64,000 nt of DNA, from NCBI GenBank assembly GCA_024123915.1, contig CP099650.1, forward strand, positions 4,216,001 through 4,280,000. Reading direction: 5' to 3'. Origin of the DNA: Oxalobacteraceae bacterium OTU3CAMAD1 (lineage in GTDB: Bacteria > Pseudomonadota > Gammaproteobacteria > Burkholderiales > Burkholderiaceae_D). A model generated the notes under the pieces. It had not been told where the DNA came from. It ran no database searches and saw nothing but the letters and a program-made list of their open reading frames with translations. Below, in pieces: positions 47,333 through 62,835 of the stretch (positions are counted from its first letter, which is position 1; each line of letters starts with the position of its first letter). The translations under genes and the position numbers were made by a program.

Positions 47333-47353
47333 GGCAAGGAATATGGTCCTTGG

Positions 47354-47437
47354 CCGGGAGTACAGCTACCATGGCGCGGACTGCGCTGTAGGCCTGAAGC
47401 TTTGCGTCCCGAGGCTTTCGCCTGGTTTGCCCTCCGG
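47354..47437 (-). ncRNA. c-di-GMP-I (GEMM) riboswitch aptamer
   Basis: On the minus strand the leader of the subtilase gene contains the conserved GEMM-I core: GGGCAAACC, a stem capped by a GAAA tetraloop (GGCGAAAGCC), GGGACGCAAAGC, then a second stem whose CCTACAG...CATGG resembles the 11-nt tetraloop receptor, followed by GGTAGC. CCGGAG (47432-47437) and CTCCCGG (47354-47360) can close helix P1. GEMM-I riboswitches bind cyclic di-GMP and often control secreted enzymes. The distance to the start codon and the competing hairpins suggest control of translation. Confidence 0.9.
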
Positions 47438-47678
47438 TTTCAATGAGTGCGAGGTTACCACGAAGACTTGCGGCACGAACACGTGTTGCGGCGGGATATC
47501 TGGTGCCTGTCGTCTGCACACAACTAGCTCATCTGTAGCGGCCAGGCATCTGTCGCGCTCGCTTTTAGACCGCGTCTTCCATTGCCCTAAACCCAGATCA
47601 ATTAGCAGTTATATATTTTGAACTTAACGGATGAGTCCTGTCTAACAGAGCGCAAGACCTACAATTAAAGGAGTCATC
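47438..47678. other. Intergenic region between the riboswitch and the next gene
   Basis: This stretch holds the minus-strand promoter of the riboswitch-subtilase unit and the plus-strand leader of the gene at 47679. GGTAACC and other short dyads are present just before the aptamer. The plus-strand frame 47343-47621 reads through the aptamer in antisense and is not called. I see no other gene. Confidence 0.5.
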
Positions 47679-49613: not shown

Positions 49614-51806
49614 ATGCACACTCCAAATCTGAAATTGTCCCCGTTCGCGCTTGCCGCGATGCTCATGGCCGGTGCCGCCGGCGCGCAAGGCCAAACCGCC
49701 ACAGGAGCGGCGGCCGATGTCGCCGAGGGCAAAATCCAGACCGTGGTCATCAGCGCCTCGGCGGATGCGTCGGCCGACGGCTTGACCAAGGATTACGCCG
49801 GCGGCCAGGTCGCGCGCGGCGGCCGTCTCGGCCTGCTGGGCAATGTGGACATGATGGATACGCCGTTTAATACGCTCAACTTCACCCAGGCCGTGATCCA
49901 GGACCAGCAGGCGCGCAGCGTCGCCGACGTGCTGCAGAATGACCCGTCGGTGCGCGTCGCGCGCGGGTTCGGCAACTACCAGGAGCTGTATGTGATTCGC
50001 GGCTTCCCGGTCAACTCCGACGACCTGGCGTACAACGGTTTATTCGGCCTGCTGCCGCGCCAGTTCGTCGCCTCCGAACTGCTCGAACGCGTGGAAGTGC
50101 TGCGCGGCGCGAACTCCTTCATCAACGGCGCGGCGCCGGGCGGCGGTGGCGTGGGCGGCTCGATTAACCTGCTGCCCAAGCGCGCCAGCAATAACCCGCT
50201 GACGCAGCTGACGGTCGGCGTCGATAGCGGCGGCCAGGGTTACGGCGCGATCGACATCGGCCGCCGCTTCGGCGAGAACGGCAACACCGGTATCCGCGTC
50301 AACGCGGTGCGCCGCGACGGCGACACGCCCGTCGACGGCGAGAAGCGCGAGTTGTCGGTAGCCTCCGTCGGCATCGACTTCCAGGGACGCGGCTTCCGCC
50401 TGTCGGCCGATGTCGGTTACCAGAACCACAATCTGCGAGGCGCGCGCCCGAGCGTGACCGTCAGCCAGGGCGTCGCCCTGCCCTCCGCGCCTGACTCGGA
50501 CAGCAACTGGGCACAGAAATGGACCCACTCGAAGGAGCGCGACACCTTCGGCACCTTGCGCGGCGAGGTCGATCTGGCCAAGGACACGGTGGCGTGGGCC
50601 GCGCTGGGCGCGCGCAGCGGCGACGAGTCCAACATCATCGCCGAACCGACCGTCGGCGGCACCGGCGGCGCGGCCAGCATGTACCGCTTCGACAATGTGC
50701 GCCACGACAGCGTGCGCACCGGCGAGATCGGCGTGCGCACCAGGCTGCGCACCGGCGCCATCGGCCATAGCCTGAGCGCGACCGCGTCGGGGTTCTGGAC
50801 GGAGTCGCGCAACGCATACGCCTTCAGTAACTTCGCCGGCTTCGCGACCAGCATCTTCAATCCGGTCGATGTGGCGGCGCCGGTTGCCGATTTCTTCACC
50901 GGTGGTGTTTTGAACGATCCGAAGCGCGTTTCTAAGTCCATCCTTTCCAGCTACGCGCTGGCGGACACGCTGTCCATGCTGGACGACAAGGTGCTGCTGA
51001 CGGTCGGCGTGCGGCATCAGTCGATCAAGTCGGAGAGCTATAACTACGACTCCGGCGCTTCGGAGTCGCACTACGACCGCAGCAAAGTCACACCGATGGC
51101 CGGCGTCGTTTACCGTCCGGTGAAAGCGGTGTCGCTCTACGCGAACTACACTGAGGGGCTGCAGCAGGGGCCCATCGCTTCCGGGAACATCGACAACATC
51201 GGCGAGACGTTCGCACCGTTTGTCTCGAAGCAGAAAGAAATCGGCGTGAAGTACGATGTCGGCACCGTGGGCGCCAGCGCGGCGGTGTTCAGCACCACGC
51301 AGCCATCGGCGTATGTGGAGAACAGGATCTTCGGCGTATTCGGCGAACAGCGCAATCGCGGTCTGGAGATGACCGTGTTCGGCGTGCCGACGCGCGGCCT
51401 GCGCGTGCTGGGCGGCTTGACTTTGCTCGACGCCGAGCAGCGCGTCACCGCCAGCGGCGTCAATCAAGGCAACGACGTGATCGGCGTGCCGAAGACGCAG
51501 CTGAACATCGGCGCGGAGTGGGATGTGCCGGGCGTGCGCGGTTTGAACCTGAATGCGCGGGCGCTGTACACGTCATCGCAGTATGCCGATGGTGCGAATC
51601 TGCAGGAGCTGCCGGCGTGGAGCCGGCTGGACATCGGCGCGAGCTATGTCGCCACCATCGCGGATCGCAAGGTCACGCTCCGCGCACGGATCGACAACGT
51701 CGCGGACAAGAGCTACTGGGCGTCGGCCGGCGGCTATCCGGGTTCGGGCTACCTGGTGCTTGGTTCGCCGCGTACGGCCGTGTTGTCGGCGACAGTGGAT
51801 TTTTGA
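49614..51806 (+). CDS. TonB-dependent siderophore receptor
   Basis: This 730-residue outer-membrane receptor has a signal peptide (about 1-27), a plug domain (DVLQNDPSVRVARGFGNYQELYVIRGF is spread over residues 98-125; then VEVLRGANSFINGAAPGGGGVGGSIN) and a 22-strand barrel ending in ATVDF with terminal Phe. This is the classic ferric-siderophore class. The ATG at 49614 is preferred over an upstream ATG that would spoil the signal peptide. Two Fur-like sites and the divergent PepSY gene indicate iron control. The ligand cannot be read from sequence. Confidence 0.93.
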   Translation: MHTPNLKLSPFALAAMLMAGAAGAQGQTATGAAADVAEGKIQTVVISASADASADGLTKDYAGGQVARGGRLGLLGNVDMMDTPFNTLNFTQAVIQDQQARSVADVLQNDPSVRVARGFGNYQELYVIRGFPVNSDDLAYNGLFGLLPRQFVASELLERVEVLRGANSFINGAAPGGGGVGGSINLLPKRASNNPLTQLTVGVDSGGQGYGAIDIGRRFGENGNTGIRVNAVRRDGDTPVDGEKRELSVASVGIDFQGRGFRLSADVGYQNHNLRGARPSVTVSQGVALPSAPDSDSNWAQKWTHSKERDTFGTLRGEVDLAKDTVAWAALGARSGDESNIIAEPTVGGTGGAASMYRFDNVRHDSVRTGEIGVRTRLRTGAIGHSLSATASGFWTESRNAYAFSNFAGFATSIFNPVDVAAPVADFFTGGVLNDPKRVSKSILSSYALADTLSMLDDKVLLTVGVRHQSIKSESYNYDSGASESHYDRSKVTPMAGVVYRPVKAVSLYANYTEGLQQGPIASGNIDNIGETFAPFVSKQKEIGVKYDVGTVGASAAVFSTTQPSAYVENRIFGVFGEQRNRGLEMTVFGVPTRGLRVLGGLTLLDAEQRVTASGVNQGNDVIGVPKTQLNIGAEWDVPGVRGLNLNARALYTSSQYADGANLQELPAWSRLDIGASYVATIADRKVTLRARIDNVADKSYWASAGGYPGSGYLVLGSPRTAVLSATVDF

Positions 51807-51915
51807 TTTGAATCCCCCGACATTTTAGGGAGTTTTGCTCTACACTTCCCAACGCCCCTAGGGACCAACAGCCGGCGCATGCTGGCATCAATCCGCGAAT
51901 GGAGATCTGGAAAAC

Positions 51916-53052
51916 ATGAATATGAGCATGCTCGGCCTTGCCACCACTTTCTCGCTCACCCTGCTCGCGTTCGCCGCCGCCCCGGCAACCGCGAACGCGC
52001 AGGCCAGTGCATCCGCGACCGGCAGCCTGCCTTTCGAGGTCAAGCCGGTGGGCACATTCAAGAGCCCATGGGCCATGGCATTCCTGCCCGACGGCAACCT
52101 GCTGGTTACGCAAAAGGAGGGGGCGATGATTTTGTTCGATCCCGCTACCGGTACCAAGCGGACAGTGTCCGGCACACCCGCCGTCAGCAGCAAGGACCAG
52201 GGTGCGCTCATGGACATCGTGGCCGCTCCCGATTTCGCGGTCAGCAAGCTGCTCTACTTCAGCTACGCCGAGCCGGCCTCCGGTGGCAGTAGCCGGGTCG
52301 TGCTCGCCACCGCGACATTGGATCAGGCAGGCGGAACGCTTAAGGATACAAAGGCCATTTTCCGCGGCCAGGATGCTTCGACTGGCGGGCACTATTCGGG
52401 CCGTATCGGCTTTTCGCCTGATGGCAAGTATCTCTTCTTCACGAGTGGCGACCGCCAGCTTCTCGATCCGGCGCAGGACCCCAAGTCGACGCTCGGCAAG
52501 GTGCTGCGCCTGAACCTCGACGGCACGCCGGCCGCCGGTAATCCGCTCGCAGCCAAGGGCTTCCATGCAGCCGTCTGGTCGTATGGCCACCGCAACCTGC
52601 TGGGCATCGCCTTCGACAGGCAGGAGCGCTTGTGGGAAATGGAGATGGGGCCGCGCCATGGCGACGAGATCAACCTGATCAAGCCAGGCCTCAACTATGG
52701 CTGGCCGAAGGCATCGAACGGCAGTCACTATGACGGCCGGGACATCCCCGACCACGCGCCCGGCGACGGCTTCGAGGCCCCGAAAGTTTCCTGGAATCCG
52801 GCCATTTCACCAGGCGGCCTCGCCTACTACGATGCGGACCTGTTCCCGAAGTGGAAAAACTCCCTCTTCATCACCGGTCTCTCGGGCAAGTCGCTGGACC
52901 GCATCACGCTCGACGGTGAGAACGCCAGCAAGGTGGACCATTGGGACATGGGCGAACGAATCCGCGCCGTGCGCACCGGGCCGGATGGCGCGCTATGGCT
53001 GCTGGAAGACGGTCCGCGCGGCCGGCTGCTGATGCTGACACCGAAGAGGTAG
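51916..53052 (+). CDS. PQQ-dependent aldose sugar dehydrogenase
   Basis: This 378-residue periplasmic enzyme (signal peptide to about 28) is of the soluble aldose dehydrogenase type (E. coli YliI/Asd). Propeller signatures are SPWAMAFLPDGNLLVT, HYSGRIGFSPDGKYLF, SYGHRNLLGIAFD and EMGPRHGDEINLIKPGLNYG, which hold PQQ and calcium in the family. It oxidises aldoses to lactones and passes electrons to the respiratory chain. It has its own 109-bp leader after the siderophore receptor; a functional link to sugar use is possible. Confidence 0.92.
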   Translation: MNMSMLGLATTFSLTLLAFAAAPATANAQASASATGSLPFEVKPVGTFKSPWAMAFLPDGNLLVTQKEGAMILFDPATGTKRTVSGTPAVSSKDQGALMDIVAAPDFAVSKLLYFSYAEPASGGSSRVVLATATLDQAGGTLKDTKAIFRGQDASTGGHYSGRIGFSPDGKYLFFTSGDRQLLDPAQDPKSTLGKVLRLNLDGTPAAGNPLAAKGFHAAVWSYGHRNLLGIAFDRQERLWEMEMGPRHGDEINLIKPGLNYGWPKASNGSHYDGRDIPDHAPGDGFEAPKVSWNPAISPGGLAYYDADLFPKWKNSLFITGLSGKSLDRITLDGENASKVDHWDMGERIRAVRTGPDGALWLLEDGPRGRLLMLTPKR

Positions 53053-53215
53053 GCCAGCGGGAACGACGTGGCGCGGACATGCCATGCCGGTAGATTAAGT
53101 TTGCAGGCGAGCTTACCGCGATTGGTCGGGTTCCGCCTAGTATGCTCACCACCGGCGGGTGCCGGTAGCAGTGCTTGGGCCATGGCAGCAGTGCGCCTGC
53201 GAACACGGCCGCTAT

Positions 53216-53288
53216 CTTAACGCCGACCTCCTACCGTACGTCTGCTTCCGCCCCTGAGCGGACTTAGGTGTCGGCCGGAGCGTTAGCG
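53216..53288 (-). repeat. attC-like dyad after the TPR gene
   Basis: On the minus strand the element starts GCTAACGCTCCGGCC and ends GGTCGGCGTTAAG, giving the AAC...GTT core pair of integron attC sites. The GTTAAGA end matches the R' consensus GTTRRRY in six of seven bases. The stop codon TAA of the gene at 53283 lies inside the first core box, as is usual in gene cassettes. At 73 nt it is in the normal attC length range. It contains one copy of the boundary motif described for this array. Confidence 0.5.
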
Positions 53289-55007
53289 GGCGTCGCCATA
53301 CATTCGCCTGAAGCCTGGTGATGCGAGCGGTTCGTCACGCAACGCAGTCAGTAAGTGATCACGCGTTACCCCTTTTTCGAACAGCTTGAGCCACTGCACG
53401 GCCCATGCGGCGCTATTCGGATCGTGATCGTTCTTTGCGAGCGTGTTTAAGGCCCGATAGGCGCTGGCTGAGTCGCCTAGCCAAGCATACGCCAAGGCGG
53501 CCGCACGTGCGAATGCCGCGACATCATGCCCTTGGCGCCAGGCCTTGCTCGCCAAGTCCATGGTTTTTTCCGGCGGCGTTTCTGAATCCATGATCCCGAC
53601 ATGGAACAGCGCATACGATATCCAGGGCGTCCCGGGCGCCAGTAGGGCTGCCTCAGTCAGGCTGGTGCGGGCTTCCGCAAGTTGCTCCCGTTTGTCTCCC
53701 ACCGCGTTTTTCGCCAGTTTCAGGTGAGCCAGGCCCAGCAGATAATGAAGTTCCACGTTGCGAGAATCGTGGCGCAGGGCGTCCGTCAGGTAGGGGATCG
53801 CGTCGCGCGGATCACCCCACTCGATCTCAGCACGGCTCATGGTGATCTGGGCAAAATCAACAGCATGTGCCGCTGCCGCCGCAGCGCGCACGCGTCGCAG
53901 CAGCTTCCCGCCATTGTCGGGAGAGGGGCAAGCTTTCAGCGCTGCATTGTCAAGAACGAAGTCGCCCTCGACTCGGCTTAGGCGGGTAAAGTCGATACGA
54001 GCCATGGGCAGTTCGGGAAAATCGACCTTGATGACCTTCATGAGCACTCGCCGGTAATGCCACATTGTCGCGTTCAGTTTCATGCCTGACAGGCCAAACA
54101 AGTCTGCAAACGCCGCTCCCCCGTCGCTGCCGTTATTCATCAGCTCTAGATACCGCGCCATCTTGTCGCGGTTTTCCGCAGTTGAAAGCATGTAGTGCAC
54201 TAGATTGAACGCCCGGGACTGAAATTCAGCTTGCGCCAGATATGCGTCAGTACCTATTTCGGTTTTCTTCATGCGGCTGAAAAAATCCTGCGACATGTCC
54301 TTACGCAACACTTCGTCGTAGGTGAGGAAATACAGGCGTCCTTGGCTGTAATCGAGCAACTTCATCGATTCGGCGGTCGTACCGGCGGCATGGCCGATCG
54401 CCATCTGGTTGTCTGTGAATCGCGCTCCCCCGAAATAAAATTTAAAACCCTGGAGGAACCACTCTGGCCCCCGAATCTCGGTGTGGCGGTACAAAAAATT
54501 CTCGCTGTATAAAGTGAGAATAGCCGACAGCGTGAAATCAACATTGTCCGTCAACAGCGACGCATTATTCGACTCCCACATCCGCCCCCGGCCGAACGTG
54601 AAAACCTGGGTGCCGGATACGCAGCTGTCAACCAAGCCAACGGTCTCGACAGGGAATTCACCGAGTTCCGCGGTCCAGTTGACCCGGTCCTGAAAGTACA
54701 AGGTGAGCTTAGGCAAGTCAGGCTGCCGAATAAGGAATGGTCGCAGGTACAGCCGCAGCACATAGTCCAGCCGCTCCAGGTTCTTCACCAGTTGGACGGC
54801 CTGTTCGGGATCGCTGTCAGAATAAACGATTAGGTGCTGGCTCTCGATCCGGAACCACGTCGATGGATCGCGCACCCCCTTGATAACAATGGTGGCGGAA
54901 TTCTGGCTGCTCTCGACCACATTTTGTTTTGGCTCGCTCACAGATGCGCCAGCGGGCAGGAGTGCAATTGCGATGAGCAGGGTAAATACATACTTGGCAA
55001 TGGTCAC
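53283..55007 (-). CDS. Exported TPR protein with degenerate peptidase-MA-like domain
   Basis: The protein has 574 residues: a signal peptide (about 1-22), a domain resembling the peptidase-MA/DUF1570 fold (about 50-300; the WFRIESQHLIVYSD strand and RGPEWFLQGFKFYFGG helix) and C-terminal TPR-like repeats (about 370-560). The zinc-binding HExxH is absent, so it is unlikely to be an active protease. The GTG start has AAGGAG. The C-terminal half is a paralogue of the gene at the left window edge. It is the largest gene of the minus-strand array with attC-like ends. Confidence 0.8.
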   Translation of the reverse strand: MTIAKYVFTLLIAIALLPAGASVSEPKQNVVESSQNSATIVIKGVRDPSTWFRIESQHLIVYSDSDPEQAVQLVKNLERLDYVLRLYLRPFLIRQPDLPKLTLYFQDRVNWTAELGEFPVETVGLVDSCVSGTQVFTFGRGRMWESNNASLLTDNVDFTLSAILTLYSENFLYRHTEIRGPEWFLQGFKFYFGGARFTDNQMAIGHAAGTTAESMKLLDYSQGRLYFLTYDEVLRKDMSQDFFSRMKKTEIGTDAYLAQAEFQSRAFNLVHYMLSTAENRDKMARYLELMNNGSDGGAAFADLFGLSGMKLNATMWHYRRVLMKVIKVDFPELPMARIDFTRLSRVEGDFVLDNAALKACPSPDNGGKLLRRVRAAAAAAHAVDFAQITMSRAEIEWGDPRDAIPYLTDALRHDSRNVELHYLLGLAHLKLAKNAVGDKREQLAEARTSLTEAALLAPGTPWISYALFHVGIMDSETPPEKTMDLASKAWRQGHDVAAFARAAALAYAWLGDSASAYRALNTLAKNDHDPNSAAWAVQWLKLFEKGVTRDHLLTALRDEPLASPGFRRMYGDAR

Positions 55008-55116
55008 CCACGTCTCCTTCTTGTTTTCAGCTTGTGTGCGGCGTTAAGGGGATGAGTAGATAGCCATATTGAGCAACTTACCGTAGGTCCGCTTATGGCC
55101 GGTTTCGGCCTACGCT

Positions 55117-55416
55117 CTACGGCATGACTGCTGCGCCGTCGATTGCTGCGCAGAAAGCCAAAAACCAAGAGATTGGGGCGATAGCAAAAAGCCACAAAAA
55201 GGAATAAATTAGCCTAGCAGCAAGCAATTCCCCCTTTGTAACGCGGAAAATTCCAACTAGGCTAGCCCCTAAAAGAGCTATCCACGCGGAAAAAAAATAT
55301 GTAAACTGTGCCTCCCAGTCCGGGTGCCTCCATGCGAGAAAGTGAAGCCATAATAGAACTGGGGATAACGCTACGGTCCAGTTAGCTAATAAGTTCACGT
55401 AAGCACGAAATTTCAT
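55117..55416 (-). CDS. Small three-helix membrane protein, unknown
   Basis: This 99-residue protein from the ATG at 55416 has three strongly hydrophobic segments (about 8-28, 42-60 and 70-92) and no known domain that I recognise. A longer frame to 55551 would read through a boundary motif, so I reject that start. GC is clearly lower than in the flanking genome. It is one of the minus-strand array genes. Confidence 0.6.
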   Translation of the reverse strand: MKFRAYVNLLANWTVALSPVLLWLHFLAWRHPDWEAQFTYFFSAWIALLGASLVGIFRVTKGELLAARLIYSFLWLFAIAPISWFLAFCAAIDGAAVMP

Positions 55417-55617
55417 TGTATGTAGCCCGAATTTAAAGTCCGCTGTTGGCCGGCCTCCGTTTATGCCCAATTCCGTCAAGCCACTTGTTGCTTTTCTGCT
55501 GGAATTGTGGTCGCTCTGGAAATGGCCTAGCAAACCGATGCTTAAGAACAAAGGGGGACGCCAGCAGTCGCCTGCGGATTCAACCGTTTTTAGCTGATTT
55601 CTGCTCCAGCAGAGCGG
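55417..55617. other. Array spacer without a convincing gene
   Basis: The 201 bp contains one boundary motif (55432-55453) and short dyads such as CTGCTGGAGCAG near 55600. No frame with a start signal is visible; it may be the remains of a cassette. Confidence 0.4.
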
Positions 55618-55842
55618 CTAAATCTTCGTATTTCGGTCCCCGCCTAACTGCGGATGAGCAATGGCAACGAGCACGGCTACGAACAGGCCATAGGCTAATT
55701 TGTCGCTTTCAAAAACGTCCATAAATATGCAGCCGATTGCGATAAGCATCGCAATCAAAAGGACAACACGGATGATCCTCGCGTTGCTGGCCTTCCGACT
55801 CGCCTTCGCAATCAAAGCCAATTCTTTTTGTGTGAATTCCAT
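55618..55842 (-). CDS. Small membrane protein, unknown
   Basis: This 74-residue protein has a charged N-terminal helix (FTQKELALIAKASRKASNAR) followed by two hydrophobic segments (about 24-42 and 50-64). The ATG is preceded by AGAGG at a short distance. No family recognised. Low GC, in the array. Confidence 0.6.
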   Translation of the reverse strand: MEFTQKELALIAKASRKASNARIIRVVLLIAMLIAIGCIFMDVFESDKLAYGLFVAVLVAIAHPQLGGDRNTKI

Positions 55843-55901
55843 TAAACGCCTCTATTTTTTCGACAACTCATCACGTGTATGGCCGCTTTTGGCTGCAGCC
55901 T

Positions 55902-56195
55902 CTATACGCAACGAAACTGGACTTCGGCAGATGCATAAGTACCGTAGCTCGAGTCTTTTCCTGTGCTGCCTACCGGTTCCACTTGCTTCCCTTTCCCCAA
56001 GCAGAACTTAGCCGCGTCCTGGAACAATCGGACTTTAACTGCGCTGCTTGAAAAATCGGTAAAATTTCCAAGCCCACCGATCATATACAAATTCTGGCCT
56101 ATCTCGACCACTCCATCCGTGCCCGTTGTAGCGCAACCCATTGTCGAGGAAGCGACTAGCCATGCGCTGAAAGCAGGAGTAAAAAACTTCTTCAT
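55902..56195 (-). CDS. Small lipoprotein, unknown
   Basis: This 97-residue protein has a lipoprotein signal (lipobox STMGC near residue 20) and a short mature domain with two cysteines (KFCLGKGKQ and the C-terminal VQFRCV) that could pair. AGAGGTG precedes the ATG at 56195. The pattern (DAAKFCLGKGKQ, then AEVQFRC at the end) recalls small periplasmic proteins of unknown function in Burkholderiales. Array gene, minus strand. Confidence 0.65.
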   Translation of the reverse strand: MKKFFTPAFSAWLVASSTMGCATTGTDGVVEIGQNLYMIGGLGNFTDFSSSAVKVRLFQDAAKFCLGKGKQVEPVGSTGKDSSYGTYASAEVQFRCV

Positions 56196-56259
56196 TGTCG
56201 GGCACCTCTCTAAAAACAGCAGTTGCGTAAGGCCGCACATGGCCGATATCGAGGCGTTA

Positions 56260-56619
56260 TTAAAAACGCGGTTGCCGCATTTCTATAACACGAGATAGAA
56301 CGACTAAGCCCTTATCGAGCTTCAACATCTCGATTCGAGCTGTGACCGCCGCCAAGTCTTGTGTCGTCACAGTGCCTTCAAAACCAATTTCCACATCGAC
56401 GACACCGTGACTGGCAGTCGACTTTATTTCAACGACTCGGTTAAGCTTTTGCATACTACGTTCTATCGGGTTCAACACGATTTCTACTAGCTTCTCCGGG
56501 TCGTTTTCTCGTACTGAGTAATGCACCAACACCACTGTCGCGCCCTTCTCGGCGGCAACGGCACCAGTGCCCAAACTGAGTGCTGAAGCCCCTATTAAAA
56601 TTAGACTTTTGCTCTTCAC
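56260..56619 (-). CDS. Small exported protein resembling one RND-pump porter subdomain
   Basis: This 119-residue protein starts at a GTG (56619) preceded by GGGGGG. A signal peptide (1-23, ending AVAA) is followed by about 95 residues patterned like the first porter subdomain of RND efflux pumps: paired NPIERSMQKLNRVVEIKSTAS and VDVEIGFEGT, then an EMLKLDKGLV helix. RND pumps are ten times larger, so this is a free-standing module. The TAA stop is followed directly by TAACGCC, an attC-like core. Function unknown. Confidence 0.6.
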   Translation of the reverse strand: MKSKSLILIGASALSLGTGAVAAEKGATVVLVHYSVRENDPEKLVEIVLNPIERSMQKLNRVVEIKSTASHGVVDVEIGFEGTVTTQDLAAVTARIEMLKLDKGLVVLSRVIEMRQPRF

Positions 56620-56686
56620 GAAGCCCCCCAGAGTTGCACTCAAAATTTGCGACGTCTGCTGTTGGCCGAATACAGACAAATTTATA

Positions 56687-57442
56687 TCAGCAACAAATAT
56701 ATTTAATCGGGTTTTGACTTCCGTTAGTGTATAGGTGAGCAACTGACTTGCCAACAAAGGGTTTATATCTGGCGGCATCCAACTCACCTGCCATTTTCTT
56801 CCGTTTCTTGTTATTGCTCTCTTCCCAGCCCGACGGAACGAAAACACCGCGCACGATTCCTCGTGCTACCGCAAGAACACAAGCAGCCTGGCTGGCTCGC
56901 TTAATACTTAATACCCAATTGCCTTTCACAGCATCGAATATATCAGAACGCTCAATGCTCGCGGCGCTATCGTTGTACTTCTCTAGCAGTTCACCCCATT
57001 TGCGTTCAATCTTAATTATCAGCAATGGGATTTCTTCAAAATTATCTAATTTTTCCGCGTGCAAAGCGGTTTTCAAATCACGTGCGTCTCTGATTCCTTC
57101 CGCCACTCCATGGCCCGATACTTCGTTTGTCAACGCCTCTGGCTCGATATGATTAACCATGTCGATAAGGGAAGCTTCTACCTTTATCGCTTCCTCATGC
57201 GACATCCCATAGCGAACAATTTTGTGCACTACTTCCTCGCCAGATTTTAGGATTGCCGCAATAATCTCTTGCTTGGCCGACATAACATCATCTGACTCCA
57301 AGCGCACCATCTGACCCTGCGCATGTGCAAAGACACGATTTCCTACCCCTTTCCCAACGTAAAAAGGCAGATTTTTTCTATTGGGGTCAAATAATGCATA
57401 TACGTAATGCCCCAACGTCGGCCACGCATCTTGATGGAACAT
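56687..57442 (-). CDS. GIY-YIG (LEM3-like) domain protein
   Basis: This 251-residue protein begins with a GIY-YIG-type nuclease core (GHYVYALFDPNRKNLPFYVGKG then GNRVFAHAQG), of the LEM3-like branch. EASLID near 90 would carry the metal-binding Glu. The rest is helical with a Lys-rich segment (SNNKKRKKM near 212). Such proteins are common in mobile gene cassettes and defence-related loci; a DNA-cutting role is likely but the target is unknown. The ATG has GGGAG. Low GC. Confidence 0.75.
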   Translation of the reverse strand: MFHQDAWPTLGHYVYALFDPNRKNLPFYVGKGVGNRVFAHAQGQMVRLESDDVMSAKQEIIAAILKSGEEVVHKIVRYGMSHEEAIKVEASLIDMVNHIEPEALTNEVSGHGVAEGIRDARDLKTALHAEKLDNFEEIPLLIIKIERKWGELLEKYNDSAASIERSDIFDAVKGNWVLSIKRASQAACVLAVARGIVRGVFVPSGWEESNNKKRKKMAGELDAARYKPFVGKSVAHLYTNGSQNPIKYICC

Positions 57443-57684
57443 CTGACTCTCCCAAAGTAGTTAATATTCTAATATCTAAAAAAACACCACCGAGTCTCCT
57501 AGAGACGCTTGACTCAAGTTGAATGGTTTCACTAAAAGTGTATCTTGCTTTTATCGCGCGCGGAATTTGTATGACCCACTTGAATAAACGCCACTCATCG
57601 AGCTGAGAGCCGAAGTAAACGCAGAACAATCGAGTCGAACCATTAATACTTTCTTTATTTCCGAGTGGCGGCTTGTGGCCGAAT
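57443..57684 (-). other. Array spacer with a possible broken reading frame
   Basis: The 242 bp contains a boundary motif at 57661-57682. A minus-strand frame runs through (FGSQLDEWRLFKWVIQIPRA) with protein-like composition, but it has no start signal and would run into the GIY-YIG gene in another frame. It may be a remnant of a cassette gene. Confidence 0.35.
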
Positions 57685-57990
57685 TCAGTCGGCGGCTTTA
57701 ACACCTGTTGCCGATGCCCACTGCCCCATGAAAACTCGGGCCGGTTCGTCAAGCTTCATTGACATGGCTGCCTGCGCCATCGCGTCCCAGAAGCGACGGT
57801 CTTGGAGCGAATGCGTTGCGGCTTCTGCAAGCTCTTCTAAGGCCAGTCCTAATTCGTTGTAGCACAAATATTCCTCAAAAGCAGCTAATCGATTGTCTTC
57901 CGAAGAGGAATTCACAACGATGAACGAGCTGGCTCTACGTAGCCACTCCTCGGTGATTCTCCATTGTTCCAAAAGCTCGGAACTCGCCAT
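57685..57990 (-). CDS. Small soluble protein, unknown
   Basis: This 101-residue, acidic, all-helical protein (SSELLEQWRITEEWLRRA, then EDNRLAAFEEYLCYNELGLALEELAE spread over 30-60) has no signal peptide. The composition resembles small immunity or chaperone-like proteins, but no family is recognised. It begins at an ATG with a weak GGAAAT site. Array gene. Confidence 0.6.
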   Translation of the reverse strand: MASSELLEQWRITEEWLRRASSFIVVNSSSEDNRLAAFEEYLCYNELGLALEELAEAATHSLQDRRFWDAMAQAAMSMKLDEPARVFMGQWASATGVKAAD

Positions 57991-58057
57991 AATTTATTTC
58001 CAAAAGGGTTTAGCGGACGGCTATTATTGGCCGCTTGCGGACCTAACACGGCGGCAG

Positions 58058-58435
58058 TCACCATTCTTTCGTAATAGTGACATATTCACCTGCAACGAAC
58101 AGGTGATAAGCTTCATAGCCATGGTCGTCGATTGTCAGTGTCAAACTCCCAGACGCCCCGAACTGGATGCGAATTTCGTTATTTGGAAGCCGCTCTACAG
58201 CTGTTACGCATTGCCCCAGGAGTGGGAAAAGATTGGCAGCCGGAGTGGCCAAGTCCGAATTTCCCGCCCTGATAATTTCATTGCCCTTAGTTTGGAACTC
58301 AAATCCTGCCTCGATATCCACTCTATCCCGCGCAAATTTAAGTGACAAACTATGTCGTCCGATAGCTAACTGATTTAACTCCTGCGCTACTAGCTCATTC
58401 AGCGGGAAATCATCGGGAATTGACAGTCCAGCCAT
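58058..58435 (-). CDS. Small beta-rich protein, unknown
   Basis: This 125-residue protein alternates strands (HSLSLKFARDRVDIEAGFEF, EIRIQFGASGSLTLTI) and ends YVTITKEW. The layout is like DUF6188-type small domains, but I am not sure. The ATG at 58435 follows AGGAG. It is the first gene of the minus-strand array. Confidence 0.65.
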   Translation of the reverse strand: MAGLSIPDDFPLNELVAQELNQLAIGRHSLSLKFARDRVDIEAGFEFQTKGNEIIRAGNSDLATPAANLFPLLGQCVTAVERLPNNEIRIQFGASGSLTLTIDDHGYEAYHLFVAGEYVTITKEW

Positions 58436-58448
58436 TTTTCTCCTTCGT

Positions 58449-58588
58449 CAATAACGCCTCACTGTCTGCTTCTGGCCGGGACCGTGCCGGTAGCTAGCAG
58501 GATAGCAACTTACTCCCGCAAAAGTTTCACGCTTTCTCACTGCCGGGCAAAAGTCGTCGCGAAGCAGCTGTTACTATAACGGTTAGGT
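58449..58588 (-). repeat. attC-like region at the upstream end of the array
   Basis: On the minus strand ACCTAAC (58582-58588) matches the integron core RYYYAAC exactly, and GAGGCGTTATTG (58449-58460) supplies a GTT core 140 bases further on. The segment carries a boundary motif (CCGGCCAGAAGCAGACAGT) and several short dyads. No integrase gene is next to it. Confidence 0.4.
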
Positions 58589-58679
58589 GAGCGGAATAAC
58601 AACAAAATGACAATGTCTGATTGTCATTTTCACAATGAAGTTCTATGATTGGGAATTCCCCCCTCCCGAAAGATGCTCG

Positions 58680-59180
58680 ATGAATAAATTGCCCCTGCGC
58701 GTCGCTGCCGGCGCCCTTTGGCTCGCTGTTTCCAGCGCGTCGATAGCTGATTCTTCCGTTACTATGCCAATTGAAATTAACGGCACGCTGACGGAAATTC
58801 CTGGTCCGTCGCTGCGCTGTCCGTCCAAATTCGGCGGCGTGATCATCGGGCGTGGCGAAGGCGCCCTTACCGGTCCGGTGGCATTCATCGCCAACGATTG
58901 CATCACCCAAAGCGGCACGTTGTTTACGTTCAGCGCCGGCAAGTTGATTGTCCTCACTGTAGCCGGCGACCAGATCTTCGCCGACTATAGCGGTCAGTTC
59001 GTTCCAACGGGCGTAGGGTCGAATTTCGCATTCACTGGCGCCACGTTCCAAGTGACAGGCGGCACCGGGAAATTCAACAAGGCCAGCGGCGGCGGTAACA
59101 TGACCGGCGCTGAAGACATCAGCACTGGACAAGGCACGATCAAACTGAGCGGTCGCATCACCTATAAAAACAAGAACTGA
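58680..59180 (+). CDS. Secreted protein of unknown function
   Basis: This 166-residue protein has a signal peptide (1-24, ending IADS) and a beta-sandwich-like mature part with a glycine/threonine-rich C-terminal half (GATFQVTGGTGKFNKASGGG). Two cysteines (RCPSKF and NDCITQ) may form a disulfide. The form resembles allene-oxide-cyclase-like or lipocalin-like barrels often annotated as hypothetical. The ATG at 58680 starts the signal peptide. It is the first plus-strand gene beyond the array. Confidence 0.7.
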   Translation: MNKLPLRVAAGALWLAVSSASIADSSVTMPIEINGTLTEIPGPSLRCPSKFGGVIIGRGEGALTGPVAFIANDCITQSGTLFTFSAGKLIVLTVAGDQIFADYSGQFVPTGVGSNFAFTGATFQVTGGTGKFNKASGGGNMTGAEDISTGQGTIKLSGRITYKNKN

Positions 59181-59190
59181 TCCCATATAC

Positions 59191-59373
59191 ATGTCTGGCT
59201 CGTGCACAGCGGACAACGGACTGAACTTGGAAATACCATCCCTGCCAGCCCTAGCACAACTAAGGCGCACGCTGGAAGTGCCCGACACCATGAAACTGCT
59301 GGTTGGCATCTCGTTTGGCCGGGCAGAGATGGCCGCGCGACAAGTCCCCCACATTCCGCACGTCACTAAGTGA
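59191..59373 (+). pseudogene. Remnant of a nitroreductase C-terminus
   Basis: About 45 codons (IPSLPALAQLRRTLEVPDTM then KLLVGISFGRAEM) look like the end of a nitroreductase-family protein, where the strand GISFG precedes the C-terminal FMN-shell segment. The rest of such a gene (about 170 residues) is absent upstream, where the unknown secreted gene ends 11 bp away. There is no ribosome binding site. It is probably a deletion scar. Confidence 0.45.
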
Positions 59374-59517
59374 GAGCGTGGTCATGAAATTTGGGGCCCC
59401 GAAAAGCGCAGCTCTGTTGAGCACATCATTGCCGTAGAAATCGTCACATGTTCAGCGTTTCCCCTAGCTGGCTCCAGTTCAAACTGCTCCACCTGAAAAA
59501 CATATATCGTCCAATAC

Positions 59518-60597
59518 CTACGAAAGTGACGTGGGTTGCGAAGGGTCAGCAATCACCACGCGGTTGCGGCCGGCCTGCTTGCCTCGGTAGAGCGCCGCGT
59601 CGGCACGGGCCACGCAGTGCTCGAACGTTTCGCCCGGCTGGCGGGTGGCGCAGCCGATCGTCACGCTGACCGAGAGCGGCCGGTCGTCATCGGCGTTCCG
59701 CAATGCCTCGACCGACGCGCGGATGCGTTCGGCGATGTGGGCGCCTTGTTCAACGTCCCCGGCCACGCAGATCAGAAACTCCTCCCCGCCCCAGCGCGCC
59801 ACCCGTTCCTCCGGTCGCACACTGGCCTCGATCGCTTGCACCACCTGCACCAGTACGCCGTCGCCGGCCTCGTGGCCGAAGGCGTCGTTGATGCGCTTGA
59901 AGAGGTCTATGTCGGCCAGTAACAGCGTTGACATCCCGCCGGCGACCAGGGCGGTATCCACCGCATGAACCATTGCCCGGCGGTTCAGCGCGCCGGTCAG
60001 CGGATCGGTCGATGCGATGGCGCGCAATCGGTGTTCCGATGCGAGTACCGCCTTGTAATAAACGTTCGCGAGCAAGCCCAGCATCAGGAAGCCGGCGCTG
60101 ACGTTAAACCAGCGCAACAGCGTCAGCACATCATGCGACACCGTCACCGGGGGCGCGTGCGCGTGTGCGTAGGCATCGAGCGCCAGATAGATCGCGAGCA
60201 GCACAACGCCATGCAGCAGTTTGCGTCGCAGCTGCGCGCCGGGGCTCACGAAGATCATGGGCAGCATCACCATCAGATAATAGTGGAAGCCACTATCCCA
60301 TCCGATGAGTGCCACGGCCAACACAGCGTGCGAGATGATTTCGATCCAGATGAGCCCCATCGCCAGGCTGTTGCGGCGCGACTTCAGCGCCAGGCGGGCA
60401 GCGACATAGATCAGTATGCTGGCGCCGTTGACCCAGACCATCAGCGACACGTCGATCGCATAGAAGAGCAGCGCGAAAAGCGCGTGCGCGACGAGCGCGA
60501 TCTGGCAACCGATCGACATCACGTGCCAAAACGTGCGTCCGTTTTGGCGCTGCAGCAGGAGGCCGGCATCGCGCAGCTCCGCAGGGTTGAGATTCAT
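59518..60597 (-). CDS. Membrane diguanylate cyclase (GGDEF)
   Basis: The protein has 359 residues: an N-terminal region with about six membrane helices (about 25-190) and a C-terminal GGDEF domain (about 205-350) with DPLTGALNRRA, DIDLFKRINDAFGHEAGD and the active motif RWGGEEF. It makes c-di-GMP from GTP. The inhibitory I-site position, five residues before GGEEF, reads RPEE instead of RxxD, so product feedback is probably lost. The ATG at 60597 has GAGGA upstream. The same window has a c-di-GMP riboswitch. Confidence 0.9.
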   Translation of the reverse strand: MNLNPAELRDAGLLLQRQNGRTFWHVMSIGCQIALVAHALFALLFYAIDVSLMVWVNGASILIYVAARLALKSRRNSLAMGLIWIEIISHAVLAVALIGWDSGFHYYLMVMLPMIFVSPGAQLRRKLLHGVVLLAIYLALDAYAHAHAPPVTVSHDVLTLLRWFNVSAGFLMLGLLANVYYKAVLASEHRLRAIASTDPLTGALNRRAMVHAVDTALVAGGMSTLLLADIDLFKRINDAFGHEAGDGVLVQVVQAIEASVRPEERVARWGGEEFLICVAGDVEQGAHIAERIRASVEALRNADDDRPLSVSVTIGCATRQPGETFEHCVARADAALYRGKQAGRNRVVIADPSQPTSLS

Positions 60598-60736
60598 CCT
60601 GGATTCCTCAGTTGGCAGCAGGCGGCTTCGATAAAACTTCCTGTCGCGCTTAGCCCACTGCACTAGAATACCATGTTGCCCAGATGAAATGGCGACAGTT
60701 ATCTTCGTCACCTGTCGTTAGATTGCGAAGGAGTGT

Positions 60737-61180
60737 TCACGCCCGCTTTGAAAATCTTTGGCGATCCCTTGAAAATCCCTGCGCCTCATAAAACCGGTGC
60801 GCATCCGAGCGGTGGTCGCCGCTTGTCACCTCGATTTTTACGCAGCCAGATGCTGAAAACCATTCGCTGGCTGCGCGCATCAGCGTGGATCCAACGCCCA
60901 GGCGTCTATGCTGTTGGTCGATGACAAAGCTCGTTATCCGACCGAGAAACCCATCAGCGTGGAATAGAGGGAGTAAATGGAGACTGATACAACCAACAAT
61001 ACTGTCCTCGATTGCGGCGACCAGCACTAAATCTGTCGAGCTATCTTGAATTCCGCGAAGCCTATCCGAAATCTGGGATGGGGTGGCCTCGTAGCCGAGT
61101 TGCTGCATCAACGAGGCAATATTCTCACTGTCCCTAGAAAGCACCCTTCGGATAATTGGTAGTTCAGGACTCATGCTCAT
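60737..61180 (-). CDS. GNAT-family N-acetyltransferase
   Basis: This 147-residue protein has the GNAT fold: LVAAIEDSIVGCISLHLL, the acetyl-CoA loop DQQHRRLGVGSTLMRAA and the C-terminal HRFYEAQGF. The substrate is unknown. Two in-frame ATG codons (61180 and 61174) are possible starts. Confidence 0.88.
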   Translation of the reverse strand: MSMSPELPIIRRVLSRDSENIASLMQQLGYEATPSQISDRLRGIQDSSTDLVLVAAIEDSIVGCISLHLLPLFHADGFLGRITSFVIDQQHRRLGVGSTLMRAASEWFSASGCVKIEVTSGDHRSDAHRFYEAQGFSRDRQRFSKRA

Positions 61181-61437: not shown

Positions 61438-62835
61438 TTAGTAAATCTCGCGGCGCAGGCGCTGCATTTGCATGTCGTGACGCTCGACCCAGCGGCGCGC
61501 TTCGTCCAGCTGCCATTCAAGGCGGCGGATGTAGTCGATCAGCTCGCGCCTTTCCTGTTCGCGGCGGCGGTCCTGCTTCTTGGACTCTTCGTTGACTTGG
61601 CGGTCCTTGGAATCCTGCGCGCCGCGCGTGTCACGCTCCAGGCGACCCAGGCGCCGGTTGGCGTCGTACAGGCGACTTTCCAGATCGTTGACGTCGTTGA
61701 GCGCCTGCGCGCGTTTCATCGCAGCCACCTCGAAATCCTGCCCGCTGACGTACGCGCGCTTTAGCTGGTTACGCAGTTCGCCGCGACATACCTCCACCGC
61801 CATGCCGGTGTTGGCGCGTCCGCGTTCGAAGGCGTTCTCCGGCACGCAGTATTTGGCGTTCTGCTCTTCCCATGCCTTGGTGTAGACGTCGCGCGTCGAC
61901 GGTATGACAAATACCCCGTCGCGCGAGGCGCTGGCCTTGCGCTCCTCCAGCATGAACGGTTTGCCGTAGCCGTCGTCCAGGCCCGCCTGGCGCCAGTGGT
62001 CGTCCAGGCGCTTTTCCCAGGCCTTGCGGTACTCGGACTCGAAAACCTTCAAACCCTTTTGACGCGCCTCCTTGCCGCGCGTGCCGAACTCCTTGCCGCT
62101 GACGGCGTCCTGCGCGCCGAGATTCCGCCAGTAGTTGACGATCTCCGCGTTCCACGCCGTGCGATACACTTCCTCCTGCACCTGCACCCCGGCGTCGCGC
62201 GCGGCCGCCGCGCGATCCCGGAAGCGGCTGTCCGGCGTGCCGTTGCGCGCATCGGTGAATCCGGCGTCCTGCCAGAACGTGCGGTTGCCGGCGTGCCAGC
62301 CGTTGGTATATGCCGCTTCGTCGAAGCGCAGTTGCGCGGTGGCGGCCCGCGCGCGGCTGTCCTCCTTCTTCGTCAACGGCAGGCCGTCGGTGCCTTCGCG
62401 CTTGCCGATGCCTTCCCAGTACTGCGAGTTTCCCTTCAACCAGCCCTCGTCGTAGCCCGCCTGGTTTAACGGCGTCTTGCGCTTGCGGACTTCCTCGCCG
62501 GCCGCGCGCACCGCGTACTGCGATTGCTGCAAACCCTTCGCGCCATCGATGGCGCCTACCGCCGCCCACATCTCGCGATTGCCCTGCTCCCAACCGGCCG
62601 TGTAGCGCGCGCCGGCATCTTCGCCGGCGGGCTTTTTGTCGTCGCCGTGATCGTCGCAGAAGTCCTTGCGGTCGGCGAAAGTGGGCGGCGCGCCGTCAAG
62701 ACCGTCCGTCCTGCCGATCTGGTTCCAGTCTCCCGTCTTGCAAGCTTCTATGCGCTGTTTCATCGATGCGCCGCAGCCTCCCAGCACCAAGGGCAAAACA
62801 AGCATCAGCAGCAGCAGGCGGGCGATAGAGATCAT
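61438..62835 (-). CDS. Lipoprotein built from DUF2799-like tandem repeats
   Basis: The protein has 465 residues. It has a lipoprotein signal (LVLGGCGAS), then a DUF2799-like start (DWNQIGRTDGLDG) and six repeats of the form Y..GW..GN...W...G..DG (YTAGWEQGNREMW, YDEGWLKGNSQYW, YTNGWHAGNRTFW, YRTAWNAEIVNYW, YRKAWEKRLDDHW, YTKAWEEQNAKYC). A long C-terminal coiled coil (about 370-465) is rich in Arg and Glu. Single DUF2799 lipoproteins are usually about 150-200 residues, so this one is expanded. The ATG at 62835 is favoured over a GTG three codons upstream. Confidence 0.8.
   Translation of the reverse strand: MISIARLLLLMLVLPLVLGGCGASMKQRIEACKTGDWNQIGRTDGLDGAPPTFADRKDFCDDHGDDKKPAGEDAGARYTAGWEQGNREMWAAVGAIDGAKGLQQSQYAVRAAGEEVRKRKTPLNQAGYDEGWLKGNSQYWEGIGKREGTDGLPLTKKEDSRARAATAQLRFDEAAYTNGWHAGNRTFWQDAGFTDARNGTPDSRFRDRAAAARDAGVQVQEEVYRTAWNAEIVNYWRNLGAQDAVSGKEFGTRGKEARQKGLKVFESEYRKAWEKRLDDHWRQAGLDDGYGKPFMLEERKASASRDGVFVIPSTRDVYTKAWEEQNAKYCVPENAFERGRANTGMAVEVCRGELRNQLKRAYVSGQDFEVAAMKRAQALNDVNDLESRLYDANRRLGRLERDTRGAQDSKDRQVNEESKKQDRRREQERRELIDYIRRLEWQLDEARRWVERHDMQMQRLRREIY

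What the first reader, a model, noticed from the sequence alone, without database searches (positions are those of the whole stretch)
53216..58588. Integron-cassette-like array of small minus-strand genes without an integrase
Eight low-GC genes, all on the minus strand and mostly of unknown function, are flanked by attC-like dyads. Two stop codons lie in or directly before AAC core boxes, as in gene cassettes. A GIY-YIG protein and small lipoproteins are typical cassette cargo. No integrase is visible, so it could be a CALIN (an attC cluster lacking its integrase) or an eroded array.
Basis: partly seen in the sequence, partly recalled or inferred. Interest (0 to 1): 0.8.

Follow-up and report, generated by a model that had tools for sequence, protein, structure and literature searches.

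The report
Gene cassette array, not an integron
A row of eight small genes in a relative of Duganella bacteria is a gene-cassette array that looks like an integron but uses a different short recombination site, and probably a different recombinase that sits elsewhere in the same genome.

Summary
The eight-gene minus-strand array is real and behaves like a cassette array, but it is not an integron or CALIN. A covariance model from 51 attC of related genomes finds none here and none credible genome-wide, though it recovers attC in 9 of 10 untrained control loci. Instead the genes are separated by copies of a 24-nt site, GTCYGCTTNTGGCCGAWWGCRGNC, on the opposite strand. Such arrays recur in Oxalobacteraceae. 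DNA shared between arrays of different genomes ends inside this site far beyond chance (24 of 48 ends, null 2.8 +/- 1.6; one pair per cassette family: 18 of 32, null 1.9 +/- 1.3). Two window cassettes recur elsewhere with both ends in sites, three more with one; one relative holds a different array at the same chromosomal place. A ~209-aa tyrosine recombinase (catalytic domain only; not IntI, Xer or FimB by curated cut-offs) often lies between two inverted copies of the site, with arrays diverging on both sides. The window's genome has an intact copy ~1.16 Mb away; the window array keeps the attI-like leader but no recombinase. Relatives occur across Pseudomonadota and on plasmids. Best reading: an orphan array of an apparently undescribed integron-like gene-capture system. 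Catalysis by this enzyme is inferred.

The parts
53240..53263 (-). terminal site at the 3' end of the array, near-palindrome GTCCGCTCAGGGGCG-GAAGCAGAC on the gene strand
   Evidence: similar sites end the arrays in L067, L210 and L216 (my reading); homology with G302/L272 ends at 53263
53283..55007 (-). cassette gene, 574 aa, TPR-containing, unknown function
   Evidence: two DNA stretches at 88% and 79% in G336
55087..55110 (+). recombination-site copy, 0 mismatches to GTCYGCTTNTGGCCG
55117..55416 (-). cassette gene, 99 aa; cassette 55093-55453 recurs in G188 (its contig C44 matches Duganella alba FT9W in length and sequence) at 83% with both ends inside sites on both genomes
55438..55461 (+). 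recombination-site copy, 1 mismatch
55618..55842 (-). cassette gene, 74 aa
55881..55904 (+). recombination-site copy, 2 mismatches
55902..56195 (-). cassette gene, 97 aa, lipoprotein-like by eye; cassette 55880-56245 recurs in G330 at 88%, at the same chromosomal locus in a different array, both ends inside sites
56231..56254 (+). recombination-site copy, 3 mismatches
56260..56619 (-). cassette gene, 119 aa, GTG start
56654..56677 (+). recombination-site copy, 1 mismatch
56687..57442 (-). cassette gene, 251 aa, GIY-YIG protein of the PADLOC family PD-T4-3; 56663-57462 recurs in G307 at 90%, one end in a window site
   Evidence: PF22945; PDLC04031 E 1.4e-37
57478..57682 (-). truncated cassette remnant; fuller relatives in L265, L268, L269 and, beside a recombinase, in L306
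57667..57690 (+). recombination-site copy, 2 mismatches
57685..57990 (-). cassette gene, 101 aa, unknown
58016..58042 (+). degenerate recombination-site copy
   Evidence: family D2; not found by the pattern
58058..58435 (-). cassette gene, 125 aa; its homologue in L264 is a sub-threshold DUF6188 match, and L264 runs into a recombinase gene at its contig end
58464..58487 (+). recombination-site copy at the 5' end of the array, 0 mismatches
58488..58577 (+). attI-like leader (AGGATAGCAACTTACTC at 58499, 1 mismatch to the shared leader), with a possibly eroded opposite end of the site; on the gene strand it reads TGCTATCCT, a possible extended -10

Best explanation
The locus is a chromosomal gene-cassette array of an integron-like but non-integron system. 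Each cassette is one gene plus one copy of a 24-nt site. The sites are direct repeats, read on the strand opposite to the genes. A ~209-aa tyrosine recombinase made of a catalytic domain only is encoded between two inverted copies of the site. It recombines sites in their TGGCCG core, so cassettes are cut out and put in one at a time, and arrays grow outward from the recombinase on both sides. The first site of an array, with a ~90-nt leader carrying a possible promoter, plays the part of attI and Pc. The window array has kept leader, sites and cassettes but has no recombinase beside it; the genome's intact copy ~1.16 Mb away could act in trans. Cargo is mostly unknown small genes with defence and immunity families among them. 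Shown: site repetition, cassette-by-cassette mosaicism with breakpoints in the site, association of recombinase and inverted sites, shared leader. Inferred: that this recombinase is the enzyme, that cassettes circularise, promoter activity, present-day activity.
For: (1) Breakpoints: of 24 shared segments between arrays of different genomes, 24 of 48 query-side ends fall in a site against 2.8 +/- 1.6 in 2000 random placements (maximum 10); counting either locus with a margin, 31 of 48. The 24 pairs are 16 cassette families; one pair each gives 18 of 32 ends against 1.85 +/- 1.34 (maximum 9 of 5000). One cassette agrees at 404 of 406 nt in two species in different surroundings. (2) Two window cassettes recur in other genomes with both ends in sites; G330 has the same outer flanks but another array, one cassette shared with the window and one with G320. 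(3) Gene strand opposite to the site in 330 of 393 site-to-site intervals with an open frame of 150 nt or more. (4) Recombinase: PF00589, 67 bits; R60, K88, R160, H183 and Y192 invariant and H157 at >= 90% in 23 aligned sequences. A site (<= 2 mismatches) within 260 nt upstream in the expected orientation in 14 of 30 family loci (wrong orientation 0) and downstream in 12 of 30 (wrong 2); across the phylum 7 of 29 (0) and 9 of 29 (1); shuffled flanks 0.1-0.2. An 802-bp stretch holding the recombinase is 95% identical in two genomes and stops at the outer ends of its two sites. (5) Recombinase-side arrays share cassettes with other arrays, for example 625 nt at 95%. (6) The leader is shared by recombinase flanks and array 5' ends, the window's included.
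Against: 17 of 48 segment ends match no recognised site on either locus. 49 of 60 recombinase-positive family genomes hold an exact core motif, but so do 164 of 332 negative ones (hand tally, taking both to have drawn the same 392 genomes), so arrays outlive or precede the enzyme. At two mismatches half or more of the recombinase loci lack a site on a given flank. The window sites are partly degenerate, and three of the five recurring window cassettes have only one clear end in a site. The loose form of the motif is hardly enriched in the genome (35 matches, reversed control 30). No excision product, circle or activity was seen. The breakpoint sample comes from loci most of which were picked for having sites, though the null used the same regions.
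Confidence: 0.8

Rival explanations
1. The recombinase unit is an insertion-sequence-like element with terminal inverted repeats; the intergenic sites are its miniature (MITE-like) derivatives that settle between genes of a low-GC island. Genes are shuffled by general homologous recombination between the repeats, not by a cassette reaction.
For: The unit has inverted ends. Long-form sites are an A site, a leader and the opposite end without the recombinase, which is what an internal deletion of the unit would give.
Against: Many sites in the arrays are single 24-nt copies, short for RecA; breakpoints pile up in the site; copies are mostly in one orientation relative to the genes (330 of 393 intervals). 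MITEs would be expected in both orientations and beside any gene.
Confidence: 0.13
2. A true integron or CALIN with strongly diverged attC.
For: One-gene cassettes, palindromic sites with two facing halves, 5' leader; two TAAC stops. Integrons are common in the genus (10 of 26 same-genus genomes in the sample, own included).
Against: attC model: no credible hit in the window array and none in 14 further loci, 12 of them array loci; no IntI over cut-off in the genome; breakpoints in TGGCCG, not GTTRRRY; the associated recombinase scores 22 bits against a cut-off of 265 for IntI.
Confidence: 0.03
3. An ordinary genomic island with a chance run of small genes and a regulatory repeat (for example a transcription-factor site or terminator) between them.
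For: The motif lies a few tens of nucleotides upstream of many starts and could be regulatory.
Against: Does not explain segment ends inside the motif, the different array at the same locus in G330, or the recombinase between inverted copies.
Confidence: 0.02

Closest known systems
Integrons (sedentary chromosomal integrons, CALIN)
   Same: one gene plus one site per cassette, array polarity, 5' leader with possible promoter beside the recombinase, recombinase-less arrays, cargo of unknown, defence and immunity genes
   Different: no attC and no IntI; 24-nt double-arm site with breakpoints in a TGGCCG core; recombinase without core-binding domain; sites inverted on both sides of the recombinase and two diverging arrays
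pdif modules of Acinetobacter plasmids (XerC/XerD)
   Same: genes exchanged as modules between short tyrosine-recombinase sites, without an integron
   Different: by recall, pdif sites are 28-bp dif-like sites of the host XerCD in alternating orientation; here direct repeats of another sequence in chromosomal arrays, with its own candidate recombinase. Seen: search listing and abstract starts only
FimB/FimE-type DNA invertases
   Same: tyrosine recombinase of ~200 aa without core-binding domain; by recall the fim repeat TTGGGGCCA resembles the site core
   Different: 18.5-24.6 bits against a cut-off of 222 for NF007371 in the four full-length recombinases; here many cassettes, not one invertible switch
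RIT elements (recombinase in trio)
   Same: tyrosine recombinases with flanking inverted repeats in Proteobacteria (passages of PMC3414803)
   Different: three recombinases in ~3.5 kb; no cassette arrays described in the passages seen

Membership tests
Integron | IntI integrase in the genome | tested here: not met
   TIGR02249: best 84 bits against a cut-off of 265
Integron | attC sites (R''-L''...L'-R') between cassettes | tested here: not met
   model R1 from 51 attC: nothing credible in the array (best E 2.2) and none in 14 other loci, 12 of them array loci; positive control 90 hits. Genome-wide scan scored 150 of 13904 candidates, one partial hit, E 1.2
Integron | single-gene cassettes exchanged singly | tested here: met
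Integron | recombination of a folded single-stranded site | not testable with these tools
   needs bench work
CALIN | clusters of attC without IntI (definition recalled) | tested here: not met
Tyrosine recombinase superfamily (the recombinase) | PF00589 domain and R-K-H-R-H-Y residues | tested here: met
IntI family (the recombinase) | NCBIfam TIGR02249 cut-off | tested here: not met
   22 bits against 265
XerC/XerD (the recombinase) | NCBIfam TIGR02224 and TIGR02225 cut-offs | tested here: not met
   53 against 335 and 38 against 330
Simple tyrosine recombinases (core-binding plus catalytic domain) | N-terminal core-binding domain | tested here: not met
   209 aa; residues 1-22 under pLDDT 50, and the nearest solved chains align with their catalytic part; class as defined in PMC8138268, passages seen
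FimB/FimE invertases | NCBIfam NF007371 cut-off | tested here: not met
   24.6 against 222
pdif modules | XerCD-dependent dif-like sites | not tested
   no XerCD assay; site sequence not compared with dif by a tool

The most novel reading that the evidence does not exclude
A gene-capture platform independent of integrons, with its own minimal recombinase, its own 24-nt site and two diverging arrays, in some genomes with an H-NS-type silencer beside the recombinase, stocks defence and immunity genes across Pseudomonadota on a scale comparable to integrons and is active today.
Probability: 0.55. Interest if true: 0.95.

Novelty: categorically new. Interest (0 to 1): 0.9.

Why it matters
If the recombinase works as inferred, bacteria have a second widespread cassette-capture system besides integrons. 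It would explain runs of small defence, immunity and unknown genes that attC-based tools miss, give a handle (site plus recombinase) to mine them, and offer a very small recombinase with a short site. Relatives of the recombinase were found in 55 of 349 sampled Pseudomonadota genomes (E <= 1e-25) and 426 of 72,556 plasmid records (261 of these below 60% identity, so not all need share the function).

Tried and rejected
PF12834/PF12835 integrase as the array's recombinase: it starts the array in L068, but only 8 of 30 array genomes have the family and only 1 of the 14 integrase loci fetched has sites beside it. Canonical integron: rejected. Rfam: only a c-di-GMP-I riboswitch in the window. Naming the site from print: six 15-mer forms of the core occur in no paper. 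Nine literature searches, over openly licensed PMC papers only, listed nothing that I recognised as this system; subscription journals and preprints were not covered. PMC3414803 was seen as outline and passages, PMC8138268 as passages, all others as listings. The IntI profile also hit an IntI fragment at a contig end (L094) and a 325-aa integrase (L202), which were not pursued. The left/right site counts mixed strands; one search corrects them and is the one used. Structure comparison by Foldseek proper was not available; only the second-look aligner was used. The outputs were cut in the middle; I use only rows that were shown. The counts 49 of 60 and 164 of 332 are hand tallies of the tables.
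Full report
What is in the sequence. The window is G000:C1:4216001-4280000 of a single 7.48-Mb contig. Eight minus-strand genes lie at 53283-58435 in a stretch whose GC falls to 47-54% over 54-59 kb against 56-69% elsewhere in the window. Products: 574 aa (TPR), 99, 74, 97, 119, 251 (GIY-YIG, PF22945), 101 and 125 aa. The GIY-YIG protein is a strong match to the PADLOC family PD-T4-3 (E 1.4e-37); the other seven have no PADLOC match at E 0.001.

Not attC. To test the integron reading I took integrons from the family: 39 of 294 genomes have an IntI match at E <= 1e-60, 36 over the curated cut-off, among them 10 of the 26 same-genus genomes in the sample, the window's own included. From their arrays I aligned 51 attC and built a covariance model. 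It gives 90 hits in 14 control loci; 9 of the 10 control loci that supplied no training sequence have hits. In the window it finds nothing credible: best 10.6 bits, E 2.1, at 13.5 kb, and 6.2 bits, E 2.2, in the array with filters off. The genome-wide search gives one partial hit, E 1.2 (only 150 of 13904 candidates were scored). The genome has no IntI over the cut-off.

What repeats instead. The dyads share GTCYGCTTNTGGCCG on the plus strand in or beside the gaps between genes; the copy at 58016 is too degenerate for the pattern. Nine matches (<= 3 mismatches) lie in 53240-58478 against 1.5 expected; the whole window has 31 against 18.8. A looser form has 35 matches in the genome, four of them in this array, but the reversed control has 30, so the loose form alone shows little. 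The strict motif does: 146 exact matches against 34 for the reversed pattern in 74 genus genomes, 58 of which have it. In the family 213 of 392 genomes have it. Often the matches are same-orientation clusters 0.4-3 kb apart. Twelve such loci were fetched and scanned; 11 of the 12 hold at least three same-strand sites in a row at the expected place (regions). Aligning 69 copies gives a 24-nt element, GTCYGCTTNTGGCCGAWWGCRGNC, with little conserved outside it (the first 15 positions were selected by the search, the rest were not). It reads as two inverted arms around an NTGGCCGA centre. A fuller form seen in one genus, in gene direction and by eye, is GTCYGCTTYGGGGCGGAACCTGCC-AAC-GACGGCAACCGGCCARAAGCRGAC, two such half-sites facing each other. 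The attC model gives no hit in the 12 array loci. Over 63 loci plus the window, of 393 site-to-site intervals with an open frame of 150 nt or more, 330 have the longest frame on the strand opposite to the site (or within a fifth of the longest) and 63 do not; median GC of the 330 is 0.49 (sites at <= 3 mismatches, so some intervals are chance).

Cassettes move. Among arrays of different genomes, 24 shared DNA segments were found in array regions. On the query side 24 of their 48 ends lie in a site; 2000 random placements give 2.8 +/- 1.6, maximum 10. Counting either locus with a margin it is 31 of 48, with both ends in 10 of 24 pairs; 17 ends match no recognised site. Some pairs repeat one cassette: the 24 pairs are 16 cassette families, and one pair from each gives 18 of 32 ends against 1.85 +/- 1.34, maximum 9 in 5000. 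Left ends mostly fall at site positions -1 to 9 and right ends at 13 to 17, with a few further in, so the exchange point is most likely within the TGGCCG centre. One cassette agrees at 404 of 406 nt in two species with different neighbours.

The window array takes part. Searching window 51000-61000 in 74 genus genomes and mapping the ends: 55880-56245 recurs in G330 (88%) and 55093-55453 in G188 (83%), both with both ends in sites on both genomes. 56663-57462 (GIY-YIG) recurs in G307 (90%) with one end in a window site; its other end abuts the truncated cassette. 58052-58436 recurs in G332 (76%); a fuller alignment ends in the site on both genomes at one side, and at the other in the G332 site and 9 nt past the degenerate window site. 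The truncated cassette 57478-57682 recurs in G301, G326 and G296 with one end in a site. G330 is the same chromosomal place: it shares window 50000-51813 (90%) and 61438-62000 (92%), but between them it has another array, with one cassette in common with the window and one (90%) with G320. So single cassettes have been gained or lost at one locus.

Anatomy of the platform. Within 260 nt and at <= 2 mismatches, a site in the expected orientation lies upstream in 14 of 30 family loci (none in the wrong orientation) and downstream, inverted, in 12 of 30 (2 wrong). For 29 loci from the rest of the phylum it is 7 (0 wrong) and 9 (1 wrong); shuffled flanks give 0.1-0.2. At <= 3 mismatches it is 21 (0 wrong), 17 (5), 12 (2) and 17 (3), against 1.1-2.0 shuffled. 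Sites further out keep the same sense: upstream 32 plus and 6 minus, downstream 28 minus and 11 plus. L307 and L310 show it in full: a recombinase with minus-strand cassettes on one side and plus-strand cassettes on the other. An 802-bp stretch holding the recombinase is 95% identical between G092 and G179 and stops at the outer ends of its two sites. In 7 of 30 family loci an H-NS-like gene (PF00816) follows the recombinase at 55% identity or more to that of L307, and an eighth has a weak match. Cassettes beside recombinases are of the same stock as in other arrays: L309 and L069 share 625 nt at 95%, L306 shares the cassette family truncated in the window, and L264, which carries the relative of the window's 125-aa gene, ends in a recombinase.

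Leader. A ~90-nt stretch (site, then AGGATANCANCTTGC, then AAANCTCACNAATTNTCAC) is common to recombinase flanks and to the 5' ends of several arrays, including window 58464-58560 (25 sequences chosen for alignment, some deviating). On the gene strand it reads TGCTATCCT, like an extended -10; promoter function is a guess. The 3' end of the window array is a near-palindromic site, as in L067, L210 and L216. In its own genome the recombinase (L037:2626-3255) has the leader, a GNAT cassette in the expected place and strand (2001-2459 minus) and an IS30-like gene beyond it (by eye). So the window array is an orphan array with a possible enzyme in trans.

Cargo. 145 cassette proteins were scanned, taken from the intervals plus the 101-aa window gene. 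73 Pfam families were hit, none in more than two proteins; the 25 shown include NYN, DMP19, GNAT, SUKH, Imm33-like, Imm63, Abi_alpha, a TIR effector, a penicillin-binding/beta-lactamase-type domain and DUFs. PADLOC gives PD-T4-3 in two, a Pycsar-type TIR and several candidate systems. Integrons are known, from recall, to carry such cargo.

Limits. Enzyme activity, circular cassettes and promoter activity are inferred. Arrays occur in many genomes without the recombinase: 49 of 60 positive and 164 of 332 negative family genomes hold an exact core motif (hand tally). Most loci were chosen because they hold the motif. Nine searches of openly licensed papers listed no description that I recognised, which does not show that none exists elsewhere.

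Noticed in passing
window 47353-47441 (-): c-di-GMP-I riboswitch, 55 bits.
   Followed up: no
L041, L045, L047, L051 and others: Canonical integrons with IntI and attC arrays are common in the genus and family (36 of 294 genomes over the IntI cut-off); one array in G001 (L045) has about 30 attC candidates.
   Followed up: partly
L068:212-1078 (+): A PF12834/PF12835 integrase opens a nine-site array near a contig start; a 54% relative lies ~1 kb from a site in Pseudomonas mediterranea (L115). Not general.
   Followed up: partly
L075:7756-8532 (-): A protein with a penicillin-binding/class D beta-lactamase-type domain (PF00905, E 3.9e-39) sits as a cassette between two sites; the class D label is by eye.
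   Followed up: no
L307:6049-6387 (-) and relatives: H-NS-like gene convergent with the recombinase in 7 of 30 family loci, perhaps silencing low-GC cassettes.
   Followed up: partly
L155:4116-5916, L144:2663-3869: In Massilia contigs, gaps hold paired inverted half-sites ~57 or ~102 nt apart, the fuller palindromic form of the site.
   Followed up: partly
L143 (Nitrospinota MAG), L078 (Nitrospirales MAG): Repeated copies of the element outside Pseudomonadota, in MAG contigs; binning errors not excluded.
   Followed up: no
window 53164-53254 against L273 and L274: A ~94-nt stretch ending in the terminal site is found at two different loci of G335 (75-79%), so array ends may carry their own conserved flank.
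   Followed up: no
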